In this document: one piece after another, positions 46,330-59,351 of the stretch | Numbering within the stretch: position 1 is the first letter of the stretch | Layout of the letters: each line of letters begins with the position of its first letter | Assembly (NCBI RefSeq): GCF_017876575.1 | Contig: NZ_JAGIOE010000001.1 | Location: 4,072,443-4,136,442, forward strand | Direction of reading: 5' to 3' | Source: Paeniglutamicibacter psychrophenolicus | GTDB lineage: Bacteria > Actinomycetota > Actinomycetes > Actinomycetales > Micrococcaceae | Length of the DNA stretch: 64,000 bases | Notes under the pieces: model-generated | Databases searched by the model: none | What the model was told of the DNA's origin: nothing | What the model saw: the letters and a program-made list of their open reading frames with translations, nothing else | Program-made: the position numbers and the translations under genes

Positions 46330-47742
46330 TCAGGCGCGCAACACCCGGTCCTCGATCCGATCGGGCACCCAACCGCCCCCGTCCCGGACCAGGTTCACCG
46401 CCAGCGGCAATTGGTGCGAGGCGCTTTCCACGATGTGCATCAGGTAGCCCGCGGTGTTGGGAAACGCGATGAGGTCGTTCGGGGCGGCACCGCGCGGGAA
46501 GACGAATCGCCGGCGCAGGATCAGCTCCTCCTCGATGCAGTAGGCACCCACCAAAAACCCGCTGAACGGCTCGCGTGCCCGCCGCGGTTCTGCCGCGTGC
46601 AGCAGGATCGGGTCCAGCAGGAAGTCGGCCGAGGTCGAGCGGCACTGGGTCCGGTTCATGTGCAGGCCCAGCAGCGGCACCCCGTCGCTGCGTTCCTTCA
46701 CGAAGGCCACCGCGGCCAGGGTCATGCCGCACCCGTCCAGCAGTGAACGCCCCGGTTCGCAGCGCAGCTGCAGGTTCCGTGCAACCAGCAACTCCGCGAT
46801 GGTTTCCGGGGTTCCCGCGGGCCGGGAGCCCAGGACGGCATCGAGCCACGGTCCGCGGACCGGCTCCTGGTGGTAGGGGTACACGCCGGTGCCCGGGTTC
46901 GTCCCCACGGACCCCAGCGAATCGGCCTTCCAGGTGACGTCCTCGCTCCCGGCGGGCTGGCCCGCGAGCGCCTCCCAAAACGCCGTCCACTGCCCGGAGT
47001 CATCCAGGTAGGACATCGGGATGCCGCCTCCCATGTCGATGAAACCTGGTGCATGCCCCAACCCGGCCAGCGCGTCGACAAGTCGGAGGGATTCGGCAAG
47101 CACCAGGGCGCGATGTTCGGCGCTGTACCCGTTGAGGTGGAAGTGGATCCCGGCGACCTCAAGCCGATCGGGGACGTGAACCCCGCGCAGGAACCCGAGC
47201 CAGCGATCTGCCCGCAGGCCGAAGCGGGTGGGCGGCAGCAGGGGGTTGGCCGAGGCCAGGCGCAGCGCGACCCTGGCCCGCACCCCGCGGACGGCGGCAA
47301 CCTCCAGGAGGTCTTCGGCTTCGTCCCGGTTGTCCAGGCTCACCACCACGCCGTTGTCCAGGGCCAGGGCCAGCAGCGCCCGGGACTTGACGGCCGCCGT
47401 GACGATGACCTGGTCGGGGTCCACGCCGCGGCGCAGGGCCTGGTTGAGCTCGTGGAAGCTGGCCACGTCGACACCGCCGTCCGCATTCACCGCCGCATCG
47501 ATGGCACCGATGGTCTTGTTGGCCTTGCACGCCAGGTACACCTGGAAATCCACGGAGTGCTCCGCGGCTGCCGCACGCAGCTCGCCGGCGTTGCGCCCCA
47601 GGGCGGAGAAGTCGTGGAGGTTCACCGGGGAGCCGAAGGTCTCGATCAGCTCCCGGCACCCCGCGGGATCCGCCAGCACCGCCTCCATCCAGGGTTCGAG
47701 GCGGGCGGTGAGCGGGAGCGTTCCGTGCATCAGGGGTTTCAT
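46330..47742 (-). CDS. Fold-III PLP decarboxylase (SbnH-like / ornithine-DAP decarboxylase family)
   Basis: The 470-residue product has the alanine-racemase-fold decarboxylase signatures. The PLP Lys is Lys73 in YLACKANKT; GIHFHLNGYS, FIDMGGGIP and LRCEPGRSLLDG bind the cofactor phosphate; VGAYCIEEELI takes the place of the usual Cys/Asp substrate motif; and FPNTAGYLMH ends the site. Siderophore enzymes such as SbnH decarboxylate a citryl-diaminopropionate intermediate, and this protein is closer to that group than to LysA by its YCIEEEL and NTAGYLMH motifs. ATGA overlap links it to the FAD-protein gene upstream. Confidence 0.82.
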   Translation of the reverse strand: MKPLMHGTLPLTARLEPWMEAVLADPAGCRELIETFGSPVNLHDFSALGRNAGELRAAAAEHSVDFQVYLACKANKTIGAIDAAVNADGGVDVASFHELNQALRRGVDPDQVIVTAAVKSRALLALALDNGVVVSLDNRDEAEDLLEVAAVRGVRARVALRLASANPLLPPTRFGLRADRWLGFLRGVHVPDRLEVAGIHFHLNGYSAEHRALVLAESLRLVDALAGLGHAPGFIDMGGGIPMSYLDDSGQWTAFWEALAGQPAGSEDVTWKADSLGSVGTNPGTGVYPYHQEPVRGPWLDAVLGSRPAGTPETIAELLVARNLQLRCEPGRSLLDGCGMTLAAVAFVKERSDGVPLLGLHMNRTQCRSTSADFLLDPILLHAAEPRRAREPFSGFLVGAYCIEEELILRRRFVFPRGAAPNDLIAFPNTAGYLMHIVESASHQLPLAVNLVRDGGGWVPDRIEDRVLRA

Positions 47743-49355
47743 GAGCGTTCTCCAAGGTGCTGCGGCATCCGTTGCCGCACGATGCGCTGGGCCCACCGCC
47801 GGTGTTCGTCGTGCAGCGTGCGGTTCAGGGTGTCGTGGCCCAGCGTGGGGCCCTCGGTGGGGCGTCCGAGCGCGGCCAGGGATTCGTTGCGGTTGCCGCG
47901 TGCGTCGAGGCAGGTTCCATCCGTGTCGGTCAACAGCCCGGTTTCCCCCGCGCGCACCATGACCTGTCCGGACGACAGCAGGCCCGCGACGAGGGGCGAG
48001 AAGGCTTCTCCGCCGGGTGCCGGGGCCGCCAGGACGCCGGGAGGCGGCGTGACCGCATCGATGAGCAGGGTGTCGGTCGGCGGTCGTGGCGGGAATGTGC
48101 CCTGCTCCAGCAGGCCCGCATCGAACAGCGCCAGCAGCTTCAAGGCAGTGTGTTCGGGAGGCCCGAAGGCCATGCGCTCCATCGACCTGGCCACGCGCCG
48201 GAAAATCCGCTCCTGCGCGGGATCCCAGCGCACCCGGGAGACTGCGTGCACCAGCTGGGGATACAGGCCCGACCACACCCTGCCCCACACCCACGCCGTG
48301 CCGGGAAGCGTGTGCCCCCGGTTCACCTCAATGCTGAGGCGGAGGTGTTCGGCGGCCGTTTCGGTGCCGCGTCCCGGTTCCCCGCGCCCGGTCAGGGCCG
48401 TGCGCCACAGGTCCAGGGGCGTGGCAGGTGCCCCGGAGAGGCGCGCGCATTCCATCGCGCAGGCCAGCAGGATGCCAAAGAGCCCGGTGCATCGGGCGCC
48501 GGGCCCGCCCGGGCGTGCGGCGAGGCCGGCACCCCACGCCAGGACCTGGTCCCGGTACGCGTCGAGGCACCGGTTGATCGTTTCGGGCACCTGCGCGGGC
48601 TTGGGTTCCATGGGCAGGTTGCCCAACGATCCCATGGTGATCTTGGCCGGTTCCCGCCCGCCGGGAACATAGCCCAGCGACGGGCCGCCGGCGCCCTCGA
48701 TCGGCATCCATTGCCCGCCGCGGCCCTCGGTCAGCAGGAGCACCGCATCGTAGGCGGTCAGCGCGGCACCCCGGATCAGGACCGCGCTTCCGGCCGGGAC
48801 GGCTGCCTCCCCCAGCGCTCCGTAGTCCCCGATGAGGGCGTCCGGGTTGCACGCGCCGGCGAGCGGTGGCCCGGGGGCCTCGCCGGGCAGCCCGTGTCCG
48901 GTCGCCAGCACCACCTCGTCATAGAACCCGGTCCCGGCGTCGCTGGCAACCTCCCATTGATCCCCGGCGCGTGCCACGCCCGTGACGCGGGCCGGCACGT
49001 GGGCCAGCGGGAACCTGGCGGTGTCGGCCAGAGTCCGGAACCGCTCCTGCAGGTACCTGCCGACCACGGCCCGGGGCGGGTAGGGCTCGGTGCCGTACCG
49101 GGGCTCGACCCGGGCCACCCAGGAAGCGAAGGACCCGTCTCCTTCGTCGGTTGTGGCGTCAACGATGCCCGCCGCCACGTTCAGCCGCACATGTCTGGGC
49201 TGGCCCGCCTGCCAGACCCGCCCGGCACCGGGCGGGTAGGGGTCGAAGACCTCGACGACCGGGCCTTCGGCGCTTGCGGGGGAACATCGGTCATTCAGTT
49301 CCAGCAACGCAAACAGGGTCTTGGGCCCTCCCCCGACGAAGGCTATGCGTGTCAT
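47739..49355 (-). CDS. FAD/NAD(P)-binding oxidoreductase of the SbnA-like cluster
   Basis: The 538-residue product opens MTRIAFVGGGPKTLFALLEL, a Rossmann dinucleotide motif of the FAD-NAD(P)-binding family. VEVFDPYPPGAGRVWQAGQP and RHVRLNVAAGIVD follow, as in the proteins of this family with a built-in FAD site. VVLATGHGLPG is the second strand typical of flavin mono-oxygenase-like folds. The last 200 residues are helical. No partner reductase is seen. It lies between SbnA-like and decarboxylase genes with 4-bp overlaps on both sides, so it must act in the same pathway, perhaps replacing the SbnB dehydrogenase. Confidence 0.78.
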   Translation of the reverse strand: MTRIAFVGGGPKTLFALLELNDRCSPASAEGPVVEVFDPYPPGAGRVWQAGQPRHVRLNVAAGIVDATTDEGDGSFASWVARVEPRYGTEPYPPRAVVGRYLQERFRTLADTARFPLAHVPARVTGVARAGDQWEVASDAGTGFYDEVVLATGHGLPGEAPGPPLAGACNPDALIGDYGALGEAAVPAGSAVLIRGAALTAYDAVLLLTEGRGGQWMPIEGAGGPSLGYVPGGREPAKITMGSLGNLPMEPKPAQVPETINRCLDAYRDQVLAWGAGLAARPGGPGARCTGLFGILLACAMECARLSGAPATPLDLWRTALTGRGEPGRGTETAAEHLRLSIEVNRGHTLPGTAWVWGRVWSGLYPQLVHAVSRVRWDPAQERIFRRVARSMERMAFGPPEHTALKLLALFDAGLLEQGTFPPRPPTDTLLIDAVTPPPGVLAAPAPGGEAFSPLVAGLLSSGQVMVRAGETGLLTDTDGTCLDARGNRNESLAALGRPTEGPTLGHDTLNRTLHDEHRRWAQRIVRQRMPQHLGERS

Positions 49356-50344
49356 CGGGTGCTGGTGCCCTGCACCCGGTCCACGGCGCTTGGTTCCGGC
49401 TCGCAGCCGAGGTTGTTGCGGACCCAGTCGTCGTCATAGACGGTGTGCAGGTACGGCACGCCGGAATCGTGGACCAGGAAGCCGATGCGCGAGCCTTCCC
49501 CGAGGCCAGGCATGTGCCGTTCCATGGCCGCAACGATCGCCCCGGTGGAGGCGCCCGCGAGGATCCCTTCGCGTTGGGCAAGCCTGCGGCACCCGCGGAC
49601 CATGTCGATCTCCTCGATCCTGCACACCACGTCGGGGTCCGCCTGCAGGGACAGCTCCGTCACGATGCCCGCACCCAGACCCGGAAAGCGCCGCAGGCCT
49701 TCCTCGCCGCCAAACAGCACCGATCCGACGGCGTCCACGGCCACCAGCGTGGTTTGAAGCTGGTGTTGGCGCAGGTACCGTTGGCAGCCCAGGAGCGTGC
49801 CGGTGGTGCTGGTGGCCACGAACAGCATGTCCAGCCGCCCGTCAACCGCCTCCATGAATTCGGGCATCGTCGTGCTGAAGTGCGCGTCCGGGTTGGCCGG
49901 CGATCCGTATTGGTTGGTGGTCACCGCACCTGGGTGCTCGTCCAGCAGCTGTTGGACCCGTTGCCGCCGGGCGGCGAGCTTGTTGCCGTCGGGCGGCGTT
50001 GGCACCAGCTCGACCCTGGCCCCGTAGGCCCGCATTATCTCCAGCGCCGAGCGGTTCGCGTTCTCGTCGACGACCGCCACGAAACCGATCCCGCGGACCA
50101 CCGATTGCCGAGCCAGCGCGATGCCGAGGTTCCCGGAGGTCGATTCCACGATCAGGCCGCCGGGTTCGAGACGTCCGGAAGCCACGAGCGATTCAATGAG
50201 ACTGTTGGCCGTTCGCTCCTTGGTGCTGCCCGAGAGCTGGAGCAGGTCCAACTTGGCAAAGATCTCCATCCCGGAGCCCTCGAAAAGACGTTTCAGCTTG
50301 GCCGTCGGGGAACTCATCGGGCTCAGTGTTCCGTCGCTGTACAT
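49352..50344 (-). CDS. SbnA-like 2,3-diaminopropionate biosynthesis enzyme (cysteine-synthase fold)
   Basis: The 330-residue product is a fold-II PLP enzyme. Lys42 in LSGSTKERTA binds PLP, ESTSGNLGIALARQSV is the substrate loop, and TSTTGTLLGCQRYL holds the phosphate. SbnA condenses O-phosphoserine with glutamate on the way to 2,3-diaminopropionate. The STKER, ESTSGNLG and STTGTLLG forms are closer to SbnA than to CysK (where GSVKDR and TSGNTGI are usual). The ATG at 50344 has AAGGAG with 5-nt spacing; a longer frame upstream lacks a site. It is the first gene of the trio; no SbnB (ornithine-cyclodeaminase-like) gene is present. Confidence 0.82.
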   Translation of the reverse strand: MYSDGTLSPMSSPTAKLKRLFEGSGMEIFAKLDLLQLSGSTKERTANSLIESLVASGRLEPGGLIVESTSGNLGIALARQSVVRGIGFVAVVDENANRSALEIMRAYGARVELVPTPPDGNKLAARRQRVQQLLDEHPGAVTTNQYGSPANPDAHFSTTMPEFMEAVDGRLDMLFVATSTTGTLLGCQRYLRQHQLQTTLVAVDAVGSVLFGGEEGLRRFPGLGAGIVTELSLQADPDVVCRIEEIDMVRGCRRLAQREGILAGASTGAIVAAMERHMPGLGEGSRIGFLVHDSGVPYLHTVYDDDWVRNNLGCEPEPSAVDRVQGTSTR

Positions 50345-50626
50345 CTTCGCTCCTTGCATTTGGTTGGACAGATCATCCGGCCCGGCGGCCCTGGAACGGA
50401 AGGGACCTGGCTGGAGCCGAGGCCATCCGGCGATTCGCCCCGGCGCGGGGAACGCCGAAACCGACATCACGGACGCACCCGTGGTGGCGGGTTACGACTG
50501 TGGCCAGTCTAGGAGCGGGGTACGGGTTCTGAACAGGGAATATCGACAGAATCGACTTTCCCCCGGGAAACTCGCAGGAATGACGTGCCCGACGTGCACA
50601 AGCGCCCCGCGTGGCAAAATAGTGCC

Positions 50627-51930: not shown

Positions 51931-54603
51931 ATGACCGCGAATGCGAACAAGACCGGCGGCAAGGAGACTGTGCTGCGGAGCCAGACCACCACGACGGTGG
52001 CCAAATTTCCATCAAGCACGAGCAAGGTTGCAAAAAGCCCTGCCCCGAAGAAAACCGGCACGGCTTCAACATCCAAGGCCGTCAGCCCGAACGCGCCGGC
52101 AGACTCCAAGCCGGCACCGACCCCGCGGCCGGCGACCGCTGCGAAACCAGCAGTCTCGGGCGCTACGTCGCCCACCACCGTGAACCCGACCAAATCCTCC
52201 AAGGCAGCGGCCAAACCAGCCGAAAAGTCAACCACCAAGCCCACTGCCCAGAGCACAGGACGCTCGAATGCGGCAACAGCTGCCTTTGAAAAGCTGGCGG
52301 CAAAACCGGCAGTAGGTGCCACCAAGCCCTCCGCCGCAGAGACCAAGACCTCCACCGGTTCCACCTTGGCGGGCGAGACCACTGCGCCCACCAAGAAAGC
52401 GTCCACGAAACCGGCAACGACGCCGGCAACACAGAAGACAGGTGACCCGATCAAGAACACGCCTGAAGCCAAATCCATGACACCGGCGACTACCGCCGCC
52501 AAGCCTGCAGCCGCTACGAGCACCACGACGGACAAGCCCGCGGCCCCGGAGACCGAGCCCGCAGCCGTAAAGCCGGACAAGCCGGCAACCACGGCCACCC
52601 CCGCGAAGACGACGGCTGCGGAAACCGCAACTCCTACGGAATCCACACCAGCTTCCGCATCCGCTGTGGCCCCGAAGGCAACGGCGGCCAAGCCAGCGGC
52701 AACCAAGGAAACCCCCGCCGCGGCCAAGGCAGCAGCCCCGGCCAAGGCAGCAGCCCCGGCCAAGGCAGCAGCCCCGGCCAAGACCGCCACCGCCAAGAAG
52801 TCGACAACTGCGGAAACCGCAGCTCCTACAGAATCCACGACAACTTCCGCATCCGCTGTGGCACCAAAGGCAACGGTGGCCAAGCCAGCGGCAACCAAGG
52901 AAACCCCCGCCGCGACCAAGGCAGCAGCCCCGGCCACGAGCGTTGCCCCGGCTGCGAAGGAATCATCCTCGGCGAAGGCCCCGGCCGTATCGAAGAAACG
53001 AGCGGTAGCCACTACCAAGCCGGCAACGACGACCACCTTGCCACGTGCCACTCCGAGCGGTCCCGAGGCACCGGAGGCGACCATCGGCACCGATGCCGCG
53101 TTCGCCGAGGCGCTCCCCGCCGAGTCGGTTCCGCACACGCTGCACAACATCTCCGAGGTTCGCCATTTCTTCCGCACCAACGACGTGCCGATCTTCTTCA
53201 TCGGAGCCACCCCGTTCAACCTCCTGGGCTTGGACCGCTGGGTGCGGAACTTCACGTACATCAGCTACTACGATGCCTGGGACGGGGCACACCCGCGCGT
53301 GTTCACCCCCGCGAACAAGCCCTACCGGGTGTTCGGCTCCGGCGAGGAAATCAACAACTGGCTCCTGCTGAACCCCGAGGTCCGCGCCCGCATGGGCAAG
53401 GACCTGAACCCCGGCGTGCGCCCGAAGGTCGCCATGGTCTTCTTCGACGAGGAAACCCAGCAGATCTGCGACGAGCTGGGATATGACCTGATCCTGCCCC
53501 CGGCCGAGCTGCGCAGCCGGCTCGATTCCAAGATCGTCACCACCCGCCTGGGCAACGAGGCCGGTGTGGCCTCCGTGCCCAACGTCCTGACCGCGGGCTC
53601 CGACTGGAAGACCCTGCGCGCCGAGGCCGACGCGGCCGGGCTCGGCGACGAACTGGTCGTCCAGACCCCCTACGGGGATTCGGGCAAGACCACCTTCTTC
53701 ATCAACAACGAGTCGGACTGGGACGAGCACAGCGCGCAGATCGTCGGCGAGGACATCAAGGTCATGCGCCGGATCAACAACCTGCCGTTGGCCGTCGAGG
53801 CGGTGCTCACCCGCTCGGGAACCGTCGTGGGCCCGTTCCTCACCGAGCTGGCCGGGCACGACGACCTCACCCCGTACCCGGGCGGCTGGTGCGGCAACGA
53901 GATGCACCCCGACGTCTTGACCGACACGCAGCGCCTGCTCGCCACGGACCTGGTCCAGCGCATGGGGGCCCGCCTGTCCAAGGAGGGCTACCGCGGGTTC
54001 TTCGAGGTCGACGTGCTCGTTGACGTCGACACCGACGAGGTCTACCTGGGCGAGCTGAACCCGCGCATTTCCGGGGCCTCGGCGATCACCAACGTGACCG
54101 CCGGCGCCTATGCGGACGTGCCGCTGTTCCTCTTCCACCTGCTCGAGTACATGGACGTGGAATTCGAGCTGGACATCGAGGAGATCAACAAGCGTTGGGA
54201 AGCGCTCTCCGGGGCCGACACCTGGAGCCAGATGATCATCAAGGAAACCCACGAGACCGTCGAGCTGCTCACCGCCACCCCGGCCACCGGCCAGTACTAC
54301 CTGGATGCCAACGGCGCCATGGTCTTCAACCGGGCGGCGATGGACTGGCACATGCTGCAAAACGAGTCCGAGGCGTTCTTCCTGCGCATCTACGGCCCCG
54401 GCGACTACCGCTGGAAGGGCGCAGACCTGGGGATCCTGGTCACCAAGGGGCGGCTGCAGGTCGACAGGGACGGTTCGCCGAAGCTGAACATCAGGGCCAA
54501 GCACTTCATCGACTGCCTGCGTGCCGGCTTCACCGGCATGCCGCTGGGCGAGGGCGCGCGGCCGCACGGGTCGGAACCCCTCGGTGTGAAGTCCCAGTGG
54601 TAG
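51931..54603 (+). CDS. ATP-grasp ligase with long Lys/Ala/Pro/Thr-rich N-terminus
   Basis: The 890-residue product has two parts. Residues 1 to about 370 are low complexity: mostly Ala, Lys, Pro, Thr with Ser and Glu, no hydrophobic segment, resembling histone H1-like or intrinsically disordered tails. From about 385 a globular domain follows. VVQTPYGDSGKTTFFINNES is a phosphate-binding loop, and FFEVDVLVDVDTDEVYLGEL with NPRISGASAITNVTAG supplies the Glu/Asn metal ligands of an ATP-grasp (biotin-carboxylase-like) enzyme. Such enzymes join a carboxylate to an amine with ATP. The ATG at 51931 has AAGGAG upstream. It is the first gene of a three-gene operon. Confidence 0.78.
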   Translation: MTANANKTGGKETVLRSQTTTTVAKFPSSTSKVAKSPAPKKTGTASTSKAVSPNAPADSKPAPTPRPATAAKPAVSGATSPTTVNPTKSSKAAAKPAEKSTTKPTAQSTGRSNAATAAFEKLAAKPAVGATKPSAAETKTSTGSTLAGETTAPTKKASTKPATTPATQKTGDPIKNTPEAKSMTPATTAAKPAAATSTTTDKPAAPETEPAAVKPDKPATTATPAKTTAAETATPTESTPASASAVAPKATAAKPAATKETPAAAKAAAPAKAAAPAKAAAPAKTATAKKSTTAETAAPTESTTTSASAVAPKATVAKPAATKETPAATKAAAPATSVAPAAKESSSAKAPAVSKKRAVATTKPATTTTLPRATPSGPEAPEATIGTDAAFAEALPAESVPHTLHNISEVRHFFRTNDVPIFFIGATPFNLLGLDRWVRNFTYISYYDAWDGAHPRVFTPANKPYRVFGSGEEINNWLLLNPEVRARMGKDLNPGVRPKVAMVFFDEETQQICDELGYDLILPPAELRSRLDSKIVTTRLGNEAGVASVPNVLTAGSDWKTLRAEADAAGLGDELVVQTPYGDSGKTTFFINNESDWDEHSAQIVGEDIKVMRRINNLPLAVEAVLTRSGTVVGPFLTELAGHDDLTPYPGGWCGNEMHPDVLTDTQRLLATDLVQRMGARLSKEGYRGFFEVDVLVDVDTDEVYLGELNPRISGASAITNVTAGAYADVPLFLFHLLEYMDVEFELDIEEINKRWEALSGADTWSQMIIKETHETVELLTATPATGQYYLDANGAMVFNRAAMDWHMLQNESEAFFLRIYGPGDYRWKGADLGILVTKGRLQVDRDGSPKLNIRAKHFIDCLRAGFTGMPLGEGARPHGSEPLGVKSQW
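52612..52935 (+). repeat. Internal repeats in the ATP-grasp gene
   Basis: A segment of about 130 bp (52612-52743) is repeated at an offset of 192 bp (52804-52935) with a few differences. Between them lie three exact tandem copies of the 18-bp unit GCCAAGGCAGCAGCCCCG (52723-52776), encoding AKAAAP. The array stays in frame and extends the low-complexity N-terminal tail. Confidence 0.85.
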
Positions 54604-54631
54604 GGTCCGAATAATTCCATACGGTGGTGCG

Positions 54632-54707
54632 GTATGCAGATGCCGCACCGCCGCGGACCTGCATCCGCCGCCTGTGCGCGGCAACGAAGAAGCCGCAACG
54701 TTGCGGC
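54632..54707 (+). promoter_or_regulatory. Hairpins in the leader of the serine-hydrolase gene
   Basis: In the 121-bp gap, GGTGCGG and CCGCACC pair around a short loop at about 54626-54651. Further on, GCCGCAACGTTGCGGC (54692-54707) is a perfect 16-bp palindrome ending 4 nt before the AAAGGAA ribosome site. They could attenuate transcription or control translation. Confidence 0.4.
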
Positions 54708-54724
54708 CACGAAAGGAACCAGTC

Positions 54725-56011
54725 GTGGACGGCACAAACCCTGAGCACCGCAACCCGGGCGTCGACATCAAGAACTGGCAATTGCCACAGAACCTTCGTT
54801 GGTCATTCCAGCACATCGCCGATTTCCTGCCCACCGCGATGATCTCGCGCGGACAGGGCCCGGCCTCCGTGTTTCCCGTGGCACTCCGCGACCTGGATTC
54901 GGTTCCCATTCCGGCCGCTTGGCCCGCGGAGCCGCCGATGAGCGTCGGCTCGGTCATGGCCACCACCGATACCGACGGATGGATGCTGATGCACCGCGGG
55001 ACGGTGCTTGCCGAGCAGTATTTCGGCGACCTGTCCGCCGGGGCCCCGCACCTGCTGATGTCGGTCAGCAAGTCGTTGGTTGGAGCGGTGGCCGGGTCGC
55101 TGTGCGACTCGGGGCTGTTGGACCCCGAAGCCCTGTTGACCAGCTACCTTCCGGCCTTGTCCGGCACCGGCTATGACGGGGCAACCGTGCGCCACCTGCT
55201 GGACATGCGCTCGGGCATCGAGTTCTCGGAAGACTATCTTGATCCCCGGGCCGAGGTGCGGATGCTCGAGCAGGCGATCGGCTGGGCCGATCCCGACTCG
55301 GCGGGCCCGATCGGGATGTACACCTTTTTGATGACGCTGCGCCGGAAATGGGAACACGGCGGGGTATTCGAGTACCGCTCCTGCGAGTCCGACATGCTCG
55401 GGTGGGTCTGCGAGGCTGCCGCCGGCGCTCCGATGCCCATGCTGCTCTCGCATCTGGTGTGGGGCAAGCTGGGGGCCGAGTTCGATGCCTCGATCGGGAT
55501 CGACCAGTACGGCACCGGCATGTTCGACGGCGGGATCAACGCCACGCTGCGCGACATGGCCCGCTTCGGCAGCCTCTTCCTGAACGAGGGCAGCTCCCCC
55601 ACCGGCGAGCGCGTGCTCTCCCGCAAGTGGATCCACGAAACCCTGGCGGGGGCCCCGGACTCCCGCGCGGCCTTTGCCCAAAGCCCGGGCGACAACCGGA
55701 TGCCCGGGGGGATGTACCGCAACCAGATGTGGTTCCCCTACGAGGGAAACGACGTATTGCTCTGCCTGGGCATCCACGGGCAGATGGTCTACATCAACCG
55801 GCCCGCCCAGGTGGTCGCCGTGAAATTGTCGAGCTGGCCGCTGCCGCAGGATGCGGCCAAGCTCTTTGGCACCCTGCGTGCCTTCGACGCGATTGCCGCG
55901 GTGCTGTCATCGGAAACCCCGGCGGCATCCCAGGCGTTCCTGCCGCTGTTTGGCGTCCCGGGGCGGGAACACCCGCTGGCCGCCGACAGCGAACCCAGAA
56001 CATCAGCCTGA
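54725..56011 (+). CDS. NylB-like serine hydrolase (beta-lactamase fold)
   Basis: The 428-residue product has the class C beta-lactamase/NylB fold. SxxK is SVSK (Ser113, Lys116) in LLMSVSKSLVGAVAGSL, the Tyr base is probably Tyr217 in VFEYRSCESDMLGWV, and GIHGQMVYINR ends the core. The Ser/Lys/Tyr spacing is nearly that of 6-aminohexanoate-dimer hydrolase (Ser112, Lys115, Tyr215 as I recall), an amidase of linear amides. No signal peptide is present. A GTG at 54725 with AAAGGAA upstream is the start. Its place between a ligase and a decarboxylase suggests amide cleavage or transfer in one pathway. Confidence 0.85.
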   Translation: MDGTNPEHRNPGVDIKNWQLPQNLRWSFQHIADFLPTAMISRGQGPASVFPVALRDLDSVPIPAAWPAEPPMSVGSVMATTDTDGWMLMHRGTVLAEQYFGDLSAGAPHLLMSVSKSLVGAVAGSLCDSGLLDPEALLTSYLPALSGTGYDGATVRHLLDMRSGIEFSEDYLDPRAEVRMLEQAIGWADPDSAGPIGMYTFLMTLRRKWEHGGVFEYRSCESDMLGWVCEAAAGAPMPMLLSHLVWGKLGAEFDASIGIDQYGTGMFDGGINATLRDMARFGSLFLNEGSSPTGERVLSRKWIHETLAGAPDSRAAFAQSPGDNRMPGGMYRNQMWFPYEGNDVLLCLGIHGQMVYINRPAQVVAVKLSSWPLPQDAAKLFGTLRAFDAIAAVLSSETPAASQAFLPLFGVPGREHPLAADSEPRTSA

Positions 56012-56054
56012 CTTGTGCTGCCCGCAACGTGCACACCCAAAGATTGGAACAGAA

Positions 56055-58799
56055 GTGACAGCGCCACTGGCGAAAATCGACGCCACCCCCTATGCCACAC
56101 CCTCCAGCGTGTGGCGACTGCGCACCGATGCCTGGGAATTCCTGGGCTACGGCTCCAAGCAGCTCACGGCACTGGCCACCCCGGGCAAAGGCGTGACAGC
56201 GGCCCACCAGCAAATGCTGGTCGAGGTCAATCGCAAGCTCAACGTCCTCGAAGCCATCGAGCCCTATTGGGCGGTGCCGGGCAAGTCCCACCTGGCGACG
56301 CTGCGCGCCCGCATCGAGGACGGCGACTACCCCGCCGCCCTGGACCTGGTGGAACCGGTCACCCGCGGCTTCGCCCGCTTCAGGCACGAGGTCGATGACC
56401 GGGCCACCGACCTCGATCCCGAGGCCCAGCCCAACGACCAGACGCCGATGTCCGACCGCCGGCCGCGCTTCGAGGTCCTGGTCGTGGACGACATCTCCGA
56501 GACCGTCCGCGAGGAACTCGTCGCGGAAATGGCCGGCCAGCGCCGGGAATCGGACGCCTTCACGTACCAGGTCAACGTGGTTCCGTCCCTCGAGGACGCA
56601 CTCATTGCGGTGATGCTCAATCCCACGATCCAGGCATGCATCCTGCGACCAGGGTTTGCCGTCTCCGCCAGGAACCGTCCCGGCGAGGACCTGCGCCGGT
56701 ACCTCGACGGCATCCTGGACCCCGGGCTGCCGCAGTTCACGCCCAGGGCCCGCATCCTGTCCCTGGCCGACACCCTCAAGGAGCTGCGCCCGGAACTGGA
56801 CCTCTACCTGGTGGCGGATGTGTCCATCGAGGAGCTCGCAGGGTCCTCGAACCGCCGCTTCAATCGGCTCTTCCGCCGCGAGGAGTCCATGGAACTGCAT
56901 CTATCGTTGCTGGGCGGGGTTGCCGAACGCTACAAGACCCCGTTCTTCGACGCCGTGCAGCACCACAGCCGCAAGCCCGCCGCGGTCTTCCACGCCCTGC
57001 CCATCTCCCGCGGCGGATCGGTGGTCAATTCCCGCTGGATCAAGGACATGGGTGAGTTCTATGGATTGAACCTGCTCCACGCCGAGACCTCGGCCACCTC
57101 CGGAGGGCTGGATTCGCTGTTGGACCCGCACGGCTCCATCAAACGGGCCCAGGATCTGGCCGCACGAGCCTTCGGGGCGCGGCGCTCCTACTTCGTCACC
57201 AACGGCACCTCCACGGCCAACAAGATCGTGCACCAGTCGATCCTGGCCCCCGGGGACGTGGTCATCGCCGACCGAAATTGCCACAAGTCGCACCACTACG
57301 CCCTGGTGCTTGCCGGTGCGCAGGTCGCCTACGTCGATGCCTACCCGCTGAACGAGTACGCGTTCTACGGGGCCGTGCCGCTGAAGGCGCTCAAGTCCAT
57401 GTTGCTTGACTACCGCCGTGCCGGGCGGCTGGACGAGGTCAAGATGGTCACGCTGACCAACTGCACCTTCGACGGCATCGTCTACGACGTCGAGCGGGTG
57501 ATGGAGGAATGCCTGGCCATCAAGCCCGATTTGGTCTTCCTCTGGGACGAGGCCTGGTTCGCCTTCGCCGGCTTCCACCCGATCTTCCGCCGGCGGACCG
57601 CCATGGCCGCGGCCGCGCGGCTGCAGGCAAACTTCAAGGACCCCGCCTACCGGGCACGGGCCAAGGCCCAACGGGCGGCCCTCTTCGACCCGGAGACAGG
57701 CGAGCCGGTGGACGACGCGGCATGGCTCAGGACCAGGTTGCTGCCGGATCCGGACGCAACTCGGCTGCGCGTCTACGCCACCCAGTCCACCCACAAGACG
57801 CTGACGGCACTGCGCCAGGGCTCGATGATCCACGTCTTCGACGAGGACTTCAGCCACCTCAACGAGGTGACGTTCAATGCCGCGTACATGACGCACACCT
57901 CCACCTCGCCGAACTACCAGATCCTGGCCTCGCTGGACATCGGCCGCCGCCAGGCGGAACTGGAGGGCTTCGAGCTGGTGCAGCGCCAGGCCTATCTTGC
58001 CCTGTCCGTGGCCCAGGCCGTGGCCCGCCACCCGCTGCTCAAGAAGTACTTCCGGGTGCTGAGCACCTTCGACCTGGTCCCGGAGGAATACCGTGAAACC
58101 CGCCGTCCCATGCCGCTGCGCGACGGGATCGCCGCGATGGACGAGGCCTGGCGCACCGACGAGTTCGTGGTCGACCCGAGCCGGCTGACCCTGCACATCG
58201 GCAACACCGGGGTGGACGGGGACACCTTCAAGCACAAGTACCTGATGGACCTGCACGGGATCCAGGTCAACAAGACCAGTCGGAACACCGTCCTGTTCAT
58301 GACCAACATCGGGACCTCGCGCAGCGCCGTGGCCTACCTCATCGATGTGTTGGTCAAGCTTGCCGAGCACTTCGAGACCGAGCGGGCGGAGATGTCCCCG
58401 CACGCGCTGGCTGCCCGCGAAGCGAAGGCCGCCCGGCTGCTCGCCACGCCCCCGCCGCTGCCCGACTTCAGCCGTTTCGCCGACAAATACCGCAGTGGTG
58501 CGCACACCGTCGACGGGGACATCCGCACGGCCTACTTCACCACCTACAAGAACGATGCCTGCGGCTACATCATGCCGAAGGAACTGATCGACCGGGTGCG
58601 TGCCGGGGAGGAAATCGTCTCCGCGGGGTTCGTGACCCCCTACCCGCCCGGATTCCCGATCCTGGTCCCGGGACAGGTGTTCACCAAGGAGATCCTCTCC
58701 TTCATGGCGGCGCTCGACACCCGTGAGATCCACGGATTCGATGCGGAATTGGGATTCCGGATCATCAACGACGTTCCCGCGCCCAGGGAACGGGGCTAG
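56055..58799 (+). CDS. Fold-I PLP decarboxylase (Orn/Lys/Arg decarboxylase family)
   Basis: The 914-residue product has the prokaryotic inducible decarboxylase layout. An N-terminal helical region precedes a response-regulator-like wing (RFEVLVVDDISETVREELVA). The PLP core carries SYFVTNGTSTANKIVHQSIL, VVIADRNCHKSHHYALVLAG, LVFLWDEAWFAFAGFHPIF and the PLP Lys near 580 in YATQSTHKTLTALRQGSMIH. A C-terminal domain follows with AGEEIVSAGFVTPYPPGFPI. Substrates in this family are ornithine, lysine or arginine; the exact one is not decided. The GTG at 56055 is 43 bp after the hydrolase gene. Confidence 0.88.
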   Translation: MTAPLAKIDATPYATPSSVWRLRTDAWEFLGYGSKQLTALATPGKGVTAAHQQMLVEVNRKLNVLEAIEPYWAVPGKSHLATLRARIEDGDYPAALDLVEPVTRGFARFRHEVDDRATDLDPEAQPNDQTPMSDRRPRFEVLVVDDISETVREELVAEMAGQRRESDAFTYQVNVVPSLEDALIAVMLNPTIQACILRPGFAVSARNRPGEDLRRYLDGILDPGLPQFTPRARILSLADTLKELRPELDLYLVADVSIEELAGSSNRRFNRLFRREESMELHLSLLGGVAERYKTPFFDAVQHHSRKPAAVFHALPISRGGSVVNSRWIKDMGEFYGLNLLHAETSATSGGLDSLLDPHGSIKRAQDLAARAFGARRSYFVTNGTSTANKIVHQSILAPGDVVIADRNCHKSHHYALVLAGAQVAYVDAYPLNEYAFYGAVPLKALKSMLLDYRRAGRLDEVKMVTLTNCTFDGIVYDVERVMEECLAIKPDLVFLWDEAWFAFAGFHPIFRRRTAMAAAARLQANFKDPAYRARAKAQRAALFDPETGEPVDDAAWLRTRLLPDPDATRLRVYATQSTHKTLTALRQGSMIHVFDEDFSHLNEVTFNAAYMTHTSTSPNYQILASLDIGRRQAELEGFELVQRQAYLALSVAQAVARHPLLKKYFRVLSTFDLVPEEYRETRRPMPLRDGIAAMDEAWRTDEFVVDPSRLTLHIGNTGVDGDTFKHKYLMDLHGIQVNKTSRNTVLFMTNIGTSRSAVAYLIDVLVKLAEHFETERAEMSPHALAAREAKAARLLATPPPLPDFSRFADKYRSGAHTVDGDIRTAYFTTYKNDACGYIMPKELIDRVRAGEEIVSAGFVTPYPPGFPILVPGQVFTKEILSFMAALDTREIHGFDAELGFRIINDVPAPRERG

Positions 58800-58801
58800 A
58801 G

Positions 58802-58836
58802 GCACCGTCCGCCGGGGGCCGCCCGGCGGACGGTGC
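58802..58836 (+). terminator. Terminator of the ATP-grasp operon
   Basis: A perfect 15-bp stem (arms 58802-58816 and 58822-58836, GCACCGTCCGCCGGG) closes a 5-nt loop directly after the decarboxylase stop codon. No T-run follows, but position and stability fit termination between convergent genes. Confidence 0.7.
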
Positions 58837-58865
58837 TGCGGCCAGCCCGCACCCATCCCCCGTCC

Positions 58866-59351
58866 TCAGTCCCGCGGCCGCACCACCAGGACCGGGCAGG
58901 CGGCGTGCCGCACGCATTGCTCGCTGACCGAGCCCAGCAGCATCCCCTTCAGTCCCCCGCGCCCGCGCGTTCCCACCACCAGCATGCGCGCGTCGTGCGA
59001 GATGGCCACGAGGCTCTTGAGCGGCGGCGCATGCACCGGGCTGTAGCTGATCCCGACGCCGGGGAACTTCTCGGCGACGGGACGCGCGTCGCGCTCCATC
59101 TCCTCCTTGACCGCGGCGGCGAACTCCTCGAACGGCGGGACATATCCGGAGGTCCACTGTGCCGGCTTCGGTGCCGTGACGATGGACCACGCCCGGGCGA
59201 CGACCACCGGCAGCGCCAACTGCCCGGCCAGTTCCACGGCCATCTCCAGGGCGAGCTGTGCGCCCTTGGACCCGTCGTGCCCCACGACGATGCTGCCTGC
59301 CGGTGCGGGCTCGATGGGGGGTGTTGCGCCAAACGGGTTCTCGGTCTCCAT
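58866..59351 (-). CDS. Universal stress protein (UspA family)
   Basis: The 161-residue product has one Usp domain. SIVVGHDGSKGAQLALEMAV is the N-terminal nucleotide strand, and MLVVGTRGRGGLKGMLLGSV is the ATP-binding Gly motif, followed by HAACPVLVVRP. It is a single-domain ATP-binding member. The ATG at 59351 has AAGGAGA upstream. It is 44 bp after the TerC gene and could share its transcript. Confidence 0.92.
   Translation of the reverse strand: METENPFGATPPIEPAPAGSIVVGHDGSKGAQLALEMAVELAGQLALPVVVARAWSIVTAPKPAQWTSGYVPPFEEFAAAVKEEMERDARPVAEKFPGVGISYSPVHAPPLKSLVAISHDARMLVVGTRGRGGLKGMLLGSVSEQCVRHAACPVLVVRPRD

What the first reader, a model, noticed from the sequence alone, without database searches (positions are those of the whole stretch)
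51931..58799. ATP-grasp / NylB-like hydrolase / fold-I decarboxylase operon
A carboxylate-amine ligase, an amide hydrolase close to 6-aminohexanoate-dimer hydrolase and a basic amino-acid decarboxylase are encoded in one operon with its own terminator. Together they could make, join and cleave amides of polyamines or basic amino acids. I know of no characterised pathway with this set. NylB-type activity on synthetic nylon oligomers could derive from such a natural amide role.
Basis: partly seen in the sequence, partly recalled or inferred. Interest (0 to 1): 0.8.

Follow-up and report, generated by a model that had tools for sequence, protein, structure and literature searches.

The report
Conserved amide ligase–hydrolase pair with decarboxylase
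A soil bacterium carries side by side an enzyme that probably makes a small amide bond, a nylon-dimer-hydrolase-like enzyme that probably cuts it, and an uncharacterised amino-acid decarboxylase; relatives of this gene set recur in very different bacteria, which points to an undescribed route of amine metabolism.

Summary
In detail: three + strand genes at 51931-58799. A is an ATP-grasp protein with a 383-aa A/T/P/K-rich tail, B a NylB-like serine hydrolase, C a fold-I OKR-type decarboxylase; a 16-bp hairpin without T-run follows. A and a hydrolase form a deeply conserved pair: one lies within 700 nt of A in 102 of 109 actinobacterial loci (two are duplicates), NylB-like in 86, the unrelated C45 Ntn-hydrolase in 15, both in 1. 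In 12 of 12 Pseudomonadota plasmid loci examined (of 32), C45 or its remnant follows A. A C homologue adjoins A in 15 of 80 actinobacterial and 8 of those 12 plasmid loci. A is labelled biotin carboxylase but lacks QVEH and biotin motifs. C lacks two glutamates of displayed Lys/Arg decarboxylases, so 'basic amino acid' is doubtful. B has an acid where NylB has Asp181, but NylB lies outside B's clade. Best reading: A caps an amine with a gamma-glutamyl or GABA group and B, or C45, uncaps it. Substrates are inferred; no such module appeared in the papers searched.

The parts
51931..54603 (+). Gene A: ATP-grasp carboxylate-amine ligase-like protein (named 'biotin carboxylase' by NCBIfam), 890 aa
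51931..53079 (+). N-terminal low-complexity tail of A (383 aa; 106 Ala, 77 Thr, 49 Pro, 48 Lys); length varies among relatives
   Evidence: composition; no family hit
53080..54603 (+). Core ATP-grasp domain of A; motif ELNPRISG at core residues 325-332
54725..56011 (+). Gene B: NylB-like serine hydrolase, 428 aa; Ser113-x-x-Lys116, Tyr217, acid Glu182 at NylB Asp181 position
56055..58799 (+). Gene C: fold-I PLP decarboxylase of the Rv2531c type, 914 aa; STHK lysine at residue 581
58801..58837 (+). 16-bp GC-rich hairpin directly after C, without T-run; possible terminator

Best explanation
A is an ATP-dependent carboxylate-amine ligase that joins an acyl group carrying an amino group at its gamma position (gamma-glutamyl or 4-aminobutyryl) to an amine or omega-amino acid, and B is the partner amidase that removes it. 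Between capping and uncapping, other enzymes (decarboxylase C; elsewhere amine oxidase, aldehyde dehydrogenase, aminotransferase) act on the capped molecule, as in the gamma-glutamyl putrescine (Puu) route but with unrelated cap-adding and cap-removing enzymes. Shown: the genes, their deep co-conservation, exchange of the hydrolase fold beside A, absence of carboxylase motifs in A, an acid at the NylB Asp181 position in B, absence of two glutamates in C. Inferred: that A forms the bond that B cuts, the identity of the cap, the order of steps, and that C belongs to the same pathway.
For: In the part drawn by class and phylum, 27 of 29 (12 NylB-like, 15 C45). Of 10 class genomes with a B match at E below 1e-150, 9 also have A. 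In 12 of 12 plasmid loci examined (of 32 found) C45 follows A (truncated in L118, behind an A-like fragment in L119). C homologues at 51% and 47% identity near A in Roseobacter and R. leguminosarum, upstream of A in 8 of the 12. Within 5 kb versus 5-10 kb of A in 109 loci: decarboxylase 15:0, copper amine oxidase 8:0, GabT-like 9:1. L136 holds GabT-like, flavin amine oxidase, A, B, permease, copper amine oxidase, aldehyde dehydrogenase. B: acid at the Asp181 position in 39 of 39 (34 Glu, 5 Asp); Asp181 matters for nylon-dimer hydrolysis and NylB is strict for the acyl side (passages of PMC7019077 and PMC11052090). A C45 enzyme removes a succinyl amide cap in vitro in azaserine synthesis (passages of PMC10445470; that paper notes a rival report that another enzyme does this step). 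A has ELNPRISG; this genome's carboxylase has EVNTRLQVEH and AMKM.
Against: No substrate is known here for any of the three. Aldehyde dehydrogenase is not enriched near A (14 near, 28 far; 14:12 without Brevibacterium). At most 32 of 109 loci have a decarboxylase, copper amine oxidase or GabT-like gene within 5 kb, and the counts include related species. The window's genome has no copper amine oxidase match and has a glutamine-synthetase-like gene with two C26 genes nearby, resembling a Puu-type cluster, so a gamma-glutamyl route may already exist there. C is beside A in only 15 of 80 loci, and C homologues also occur away from A. Seven of 109 A loci have no hydrolase within 700 nt, and G318 has a strong B but no A found, its B ending 67 nt from a contig edge. 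The acid at the Asp181 position also occurs in hydrolases not beside A (L165, L166, L182 and five rhizobial ones). In Roseateles/Shinella the neighbours are arginine/4-guanidinobutyrate genes, where capping has no obvious need. Foldseek gives only generic ATP-grasp similarity (TM about 0.5, biotin carboxylases first).
Confidence: 0.45

Rival explanations
1. A and B make and break a storage or signalling dipeptide of GABA or another omega-amino acid (homocarnosine-like), not a protective cap. GABA-forming routes feed it.
For: GABA is the common end product, by my reading, of the better-annotated neighbourhoods: GabT-like genes, guanidinobutyrate genes, a GntR-aminotransferase regulator in Cupriavidus. 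NylB, which carries Asp181, is strict for an omega-amino acyl group (passages).
Against: No dipeptide known; oxidising enzymes in L074-L076 and L136 fit a catabolic route better.
Confidence: 0.2
2. C is an unrelated passenger and only A plus hydrolase is a functional unit.
For: C is absent within 5 kb in 65 of 80 loci and occurs without A nearby, in three plasmid records next to aspT-annotated antiporters.
Against: C adjoins A in several Micrococcaceae lineages and Flexivirga, and in Roseobacter, Pseudorhodobacter, Cupriavidus, Rhizobium and Sinorhizobium; 0 of 109 loci have C at 5-10 kb versus 15 within 5 kb.
Confidence: 0.2
3. A is a carboxylase of the biotin-carboxylase type and B and C are unrelated neighbours.
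For: NCBIfam name and weak pyruvate-carboxylase similarity (E 3e-4); Foldseek tops are biotin carboxylases.
Against: No QVEH motif, no biotin motif in A; hydrolase partner nearly always present.
Confidence: 0.05
4. B is a nylon-oligomer or xenobiotic hydrolase acquired with the cluster.
For: Fold and catalytic residues of NylB.
Against: B's clade spans many actinobacterial genera and excludes NylB; Glu replaces Asp181 and Asp replaces Asn266.
Confidence: 0.04

Closest known systems
gamma-glutamyl-putrescine (Puu) pathway of E. coli (recalled)
   Same: Logic of capping an amine by an ATP-dependent ligase and removing the cap by an amidase; in some relatives amine oxidase, aldehyde dehydrogenase and GabT-type aminotransferase lie near A (L074, L075, L136)
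   Different: Ligase is ATP-grasp, not glutamine-synthetase fold; hydrolase is beta-lactamase fold or C45, not C26; decarboxylase attached; cap not proven to be glutamyl
NylB 6-aminohexanoate-dimer hydrolase
   Same: Fold, Ser-x-x-Lys and Tyr, acid at position 181, Tyr170
   Different: Glu for Asp181, Asp for Asn266, Arg179 where NylB has Gln; NylB outside B's clade
Rv2531c 'probable amino acid decarboxylase' of M. tuberculosis (structures 9n0n/9n0o)
   Same: Nearly full-length sequence match of C, same PGQ and NKT motifs
   Different: Its activity is not established (passages of PMC12910592); whether an A homologue lies near it was not examined
Glutathionylspermidine synthetase/amidase (recalled)
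   Same: ATP-dependent ligase and amidase for one amide
   Different: Two domains of one protein, other hydrolase fold
AzsT, C45 amidase of azaserine biosynthesis (PMC10445470, passages)
   Same: C45 family enzyme removing an acyl cap from a nitrogen
   Different: Cap there is succinyl, added by an N-acyltransferase; the window has NylB-like B instead of C45

Membership tests
Biotin carboxylase | NCBIfam NF005096 score above cut-off | tested here: met
   725.3 bits against 684; this gives the name only
Biotin carboxylase | ExNxR followed by QVEH; biotin attachment motif | tested here: not met
   A: ELNPRISGASAIT, no MKM/MKL; own genome's carboxylase: EVNTRLQVEHTIS with AMKM. That QVEH is diagnostic is recalled
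ATP-grasp superfamily | Fold and ExNxR motif | tested here: met
   Model pLDDT 86; Foldseek E 1e-15 to ATP-grasp enzymes, TM about 0.5; motif
ATP-grasp carboxylate-amine ligase | Amide formation with ATP | not testable with these tools
   No assay
NylB-like serine hydrolase (beta-lactamase fold) | Ser-x-x-Lys and Tyr, fold | tested here: met
   39 of 39; Foldseek to NylB E about 1e-29
6-aminohexanoate-dimer hydrolase (NylB proper) | Asp181 and Asn266 | tested here: not met
   Glu182 and Asp268 at these positions
6-aminohexanoate-dimer hydrolase (NylB proper) | Grouping with NylB in a tree | tested here: not met
   NylB pairs with L166 (100/97) outside the 42-row clade (100/99) (one alignment, midpoint root, some long branches)
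OKR decarboxylase (fold I) | Pfam OKR_DC_1 above cut-off and PLP lysine motif STHK | tested here: met
   246.8 bits against 27; STHK lysine 581. The C-terminal domain model OKR_DC_1_C is just under its cut-off (23.7 against 24.2)
Lys/Arg/Orn decarboxylase (basic substrate) | Glu at LdcI position 526 (VEKT) and PGE | tested here: not met
   NKT pattern matched in 29 of 33 family rows; PGQ in 30 of 33, PGE in 1, 2 not covered; LdcI and lysine decarboxylase 6y3x show VEK and PGE, LdcC and arginine decarboxylase 6q6i PGE. Role of Glu526 recalled
Puu pathway | Glutamine-synthetase-type ligase and C26 hydrolase | tested here: not met
   Neither among A, B, C; such genes lie elsewhere in this genome

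The most novel reading that the evidence does not exclude
A and its hydrolase are a general cap-uncap module, a distinct solution to amine protection: A attaches a gamma-amino acyl cap to the side-chain amine of an amino acid, C decarboxylates the capped amino acid (which would explain why two glutamates of Lys/Arg decarboxylases are Asn and Gln in it), later enzymes oxidise it, and a hydrolase of either of two unrelated folds removes the cap. NylB's recognition of nylon dimers is then an exaptation of cap recognition in a sister lineage, and the Rv2531c-type decarboxylases act on capped or otherwise non-basic substrates.
Probability: 0.2. Interest if true: 0.82.

Novelty: new variant of a known kind. 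Interest (0 to 1): 0.62.

Why it matters
It would give a pathway to a ligase family named biotin carboxylase on weak grounds, a context for an uncharacterised decarboxylase family (activity not established), and a natural role for NylB-type hydrolases, whose origin as nylon enzymes is a classic question (recalled). The exchange of two unrelated hydrolases beside the same ligase makes the shared reaction directly testable.

Tried and rejected
Biotin carboxylation by A: rejected on motifs. NylB descending from the A-linked hydrolases: not supported, since NylB lies outside their clade (long branches are present, so its exact place is unsure). A straightforward Puu replacement in this organism: weakened by a separate Puu-like cluster and no copper amine oxidase match. 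Enrichment of aldehyde dehydrogenase near A: tested and not found. A permease test was uninformative because tblastn recovered few permeases (3:1). L154 (22% identity) was dropped before the counts. Arginine transamination in rhizobia (PMC7268258, passages): no mention of A in the passages seen. beta-Lactone peptide ligases (PMC11427300, passages) and a polyamide-4 enzyme (PMC13269358, passages): no bearing on this gene set found. Papers: searches returned none; others (1 paper; 6; 5) returned nothing on this gene set by title. Not held: PMC12329521 and the LdcI structure paper.

Full report
What is there. The window lies in an actinobacterial genome (4.9 Mb) whose nearest named relatives by gene A are Paeniglutamicibacter and Arthrobacter (A of P. 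psychrophenolicus is 95% identical). The three genes and their boundaries are as given in the observation check. A carries a 383-aa tail rich in Ala, Thr, Pro and Lys; relatives have tails from about a dozen to several hundred residues (upper bounds from open frames).

Co-conservation, first sample. A scan of GTDB genomes with A kept 80 loci (124 were found). A NylB-like gene lies within 700 nt of A in 75 of 80. The five others: L046 ends at the contig edge, L063 has it 6.1 kb away, and L020, L024, L027 are second A copies in genomes whose other A (L076, L075, L074) has one nearby. C lies within 5 kb in 15 of 80, in both orientations.

Second sample. The family NF005096 at E up to 1e-60 occurs in 19 of 394 genomes of the class and over its cut-off in 13 of 296 of the phylum, the window's own included in both. 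I fetched 30 stretches: 29 around these matches, the window's own left out, and one around a weaker match (L154, 22% identity), which was dropped from the counts. Of the 29, 12 have a NylB-like gene and 15 a C45 gene within 700 nt of A, none both; 2 have neither. L143 ends 138 nt after A; in L135 a NylB-like gene lies 19 kb off on the same contig. In the reverse direction, of 246 class genomes searched with B, 10 match at E below 1e-150; 9 of these have A, and in the tenth (G318) B ends 67 nt from a contig edge.

Another phylum. Plasmid records hold A in 32 cases; I examined 12. All 12 have a C45 gene or remnant after A (in L118 only about 75 residues beside an IS30 transposase; in L119 behind an A-like fragment). 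Eight have C upstream of A: Roseobacter, Pseudorhodobacter, Cupriavidus oxalaticus, four R. leguminosarum and S. meliloti SM11. Pairwise, C is 51% identical to the Roseobacter and 47% to an R. leguminosarum homologue. A carbon-nitrogen hydrolase sits just upstream of C or A in four and about 7.5 kb upstream of A in three. In Roseateles, Shinella and Sinorhizobium RAC02 the neighbours are permease, universal stress protein, agmatinase-like, 5-guanidino-2-oxopentanoate decarboxylase, aldehyde dehydrogenase, D-amino acid dehydrogenase and alanine racemase, which I read as arginine to 4-guanidinobutyrate to GABA. In rhizobia a peptide-type ABC transporter, an amidase and a NylB-like hydrolase follow in most of the five; L118 is rearranged around IS elements.

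Neighbour test. Comparing genes within 5 kb of A with those 5-10 kb away in the same 109 loci (tblastn, E up to 1e-20): NylB-like 87:1, C45 17:1, decarboxylase 15:0, copper amine oxidase 8:0, GabT-like 9:1, aldehyde dehydrogenase 14:28 (14:12 without Brevibacterium, where it is a fixed distant neighbour). So amine oxidase, GabT-like and decarboxylase lie near A rather than further off, aldehyde dehydrogenase does not, and the counts include related species and the duplicates named above. L136 is the richest locus seen: GabT-like, flavin amine oxidase, A, B, permease, acetyltransferase, copper amine oxidase, aldehyde dehydrogenase. In L125-L132 none of the queried amine genes was found beside A and B.

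Gene A. The predicted fold (pLDDT 86) matches ATP-grasp enzymes in general, biotin carboxylases, PurK and PurD-type ligases among the first. The motif ELNPRISG replaces the EVNTRLQVEH of this genome's own biotin carboxylase, and A has no biotin motif. I take A as a carboxylate-amine ligase by exclusion and by its partner; this is inference.

Gene B. The catalytic Ser-Lys-Tyr of NylB is invariant in 39 of 39 hydrolases from A loci, and the position of NylB Asp181 is Glu in 34 and Asp in 5; Arg in 34 and His in 5 stand three residues earlier on one predicted helix. A NylB homologue differing at Asp181 and Asn266 was suggested to have another substrate (PMC7019077 passages), and NylB is strict for the acyl side and loose for the leaving side (PMC11052090 passages). 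Among other relatives, L165, L166, L182, L117 and five rhizobial ones also have an acid there, while L167-L170, L181, L183 and L184 have Arg, Phe or Gly and L171-L180 a gap. So the acid marks a wider group than the A-linked hydrolases. I infer that B binds an ammonium of the acyl group; the paired Arg could bind a carboxylate, which would fit gamma-glutamyl; GABA fits without it. The tree puts the 39 hydrolases from A loci with L117, L163 and L164 in one clade (100/99) and NylB outside with L166.

Gene C. C matches nearly along its length the protein 9n0n; this decarboxylase, Rv2531c, has no established activity (PMC12910592 passages). In the displayed alignments LdcI and 6y3x have VEK and PGE, LdcC and 6q6i PGE, where the C family has NKT and PGQ. 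From recall, LdcI Glu526 binds the substrate's side-chain amine; its absence argues for a capped or non-basic substrate. Unlinked C homologues in three plasmid records sit beside aspT-annotated antiporters, which hints at acidic amino acids as another option.

Mechanism and its limits. The adjacency of one ligase with either of two unrelated amidases is best explained if both undo a bond of the same kind that A makes. The Puu pathway (recalled) and the azaserine C45 enzyme (the paper notes a rival report) suggest such caps. The steps from C to B, the cap and the physiological role are not shown. The window's genome gave no copper amine oxidase match and has a separate Puu-like cluster, so the module there would serve another amine, another cap or another condition.

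Verdict. I rate it a new variant of a known kind, interest 0.62, with the bolder reading given separately.

Noticed in passing
window 46330-50470, - strand: Three adjacent genes: a type III-fold PLP decarboxylase, a FAD/NAD(P)-binding protein and a PALP-family enzyme, siderophore-like in make-up (my reading). ORF clusters of matching length lie near the A-B-C set in L002-L005 and L010; not compared directly.
   Followed up: partly
window 51931-53079: Ala/Thr/Pro/Lys-rich 383-aa tail on A; other lineages have tails of very different length, in L074-L076 about 35% Ala and 23% Lys. Role unknown.
   Followed up: partly
window 58866-59351, - strand: Universal stress protein gene convergent with C; universal stress protein genes also lie near A in L026, L071, L078, L114, L116.
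   Followed up: partly
L192 5660-6748 and 9998-11422: In G331, which also has an A-C45 pair (L138), the nearest NylB relative in my tree (L166) lies about 3 kb from an amidase-signature gene; NylA is an amidase too (passage). Possibly a natural counterpart of the nylon gene set.
   Followed up: partly
L200, L201, L202: C homologues without A nearby sit beside aspT-annotated antiporters, in two also an aspartate 4-decarboxylase: possible acid-stress use with an acidic amino acid.
   Followed up: partly
L118 12141-22750: Rhizobial C-A-C45 set about 10 kb from nifA/nifB with C split over two frames and C45 cut short next to IS elements; described only.
   Followed up: no
L193 (G000:C1:4566500-4586400): Glutamine-synthetase-like gene with two C26 genes, oxidoreductase, permease and GntR-FCD regulator: a Puu-like cluster in the same genome.
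   Followed up: partly
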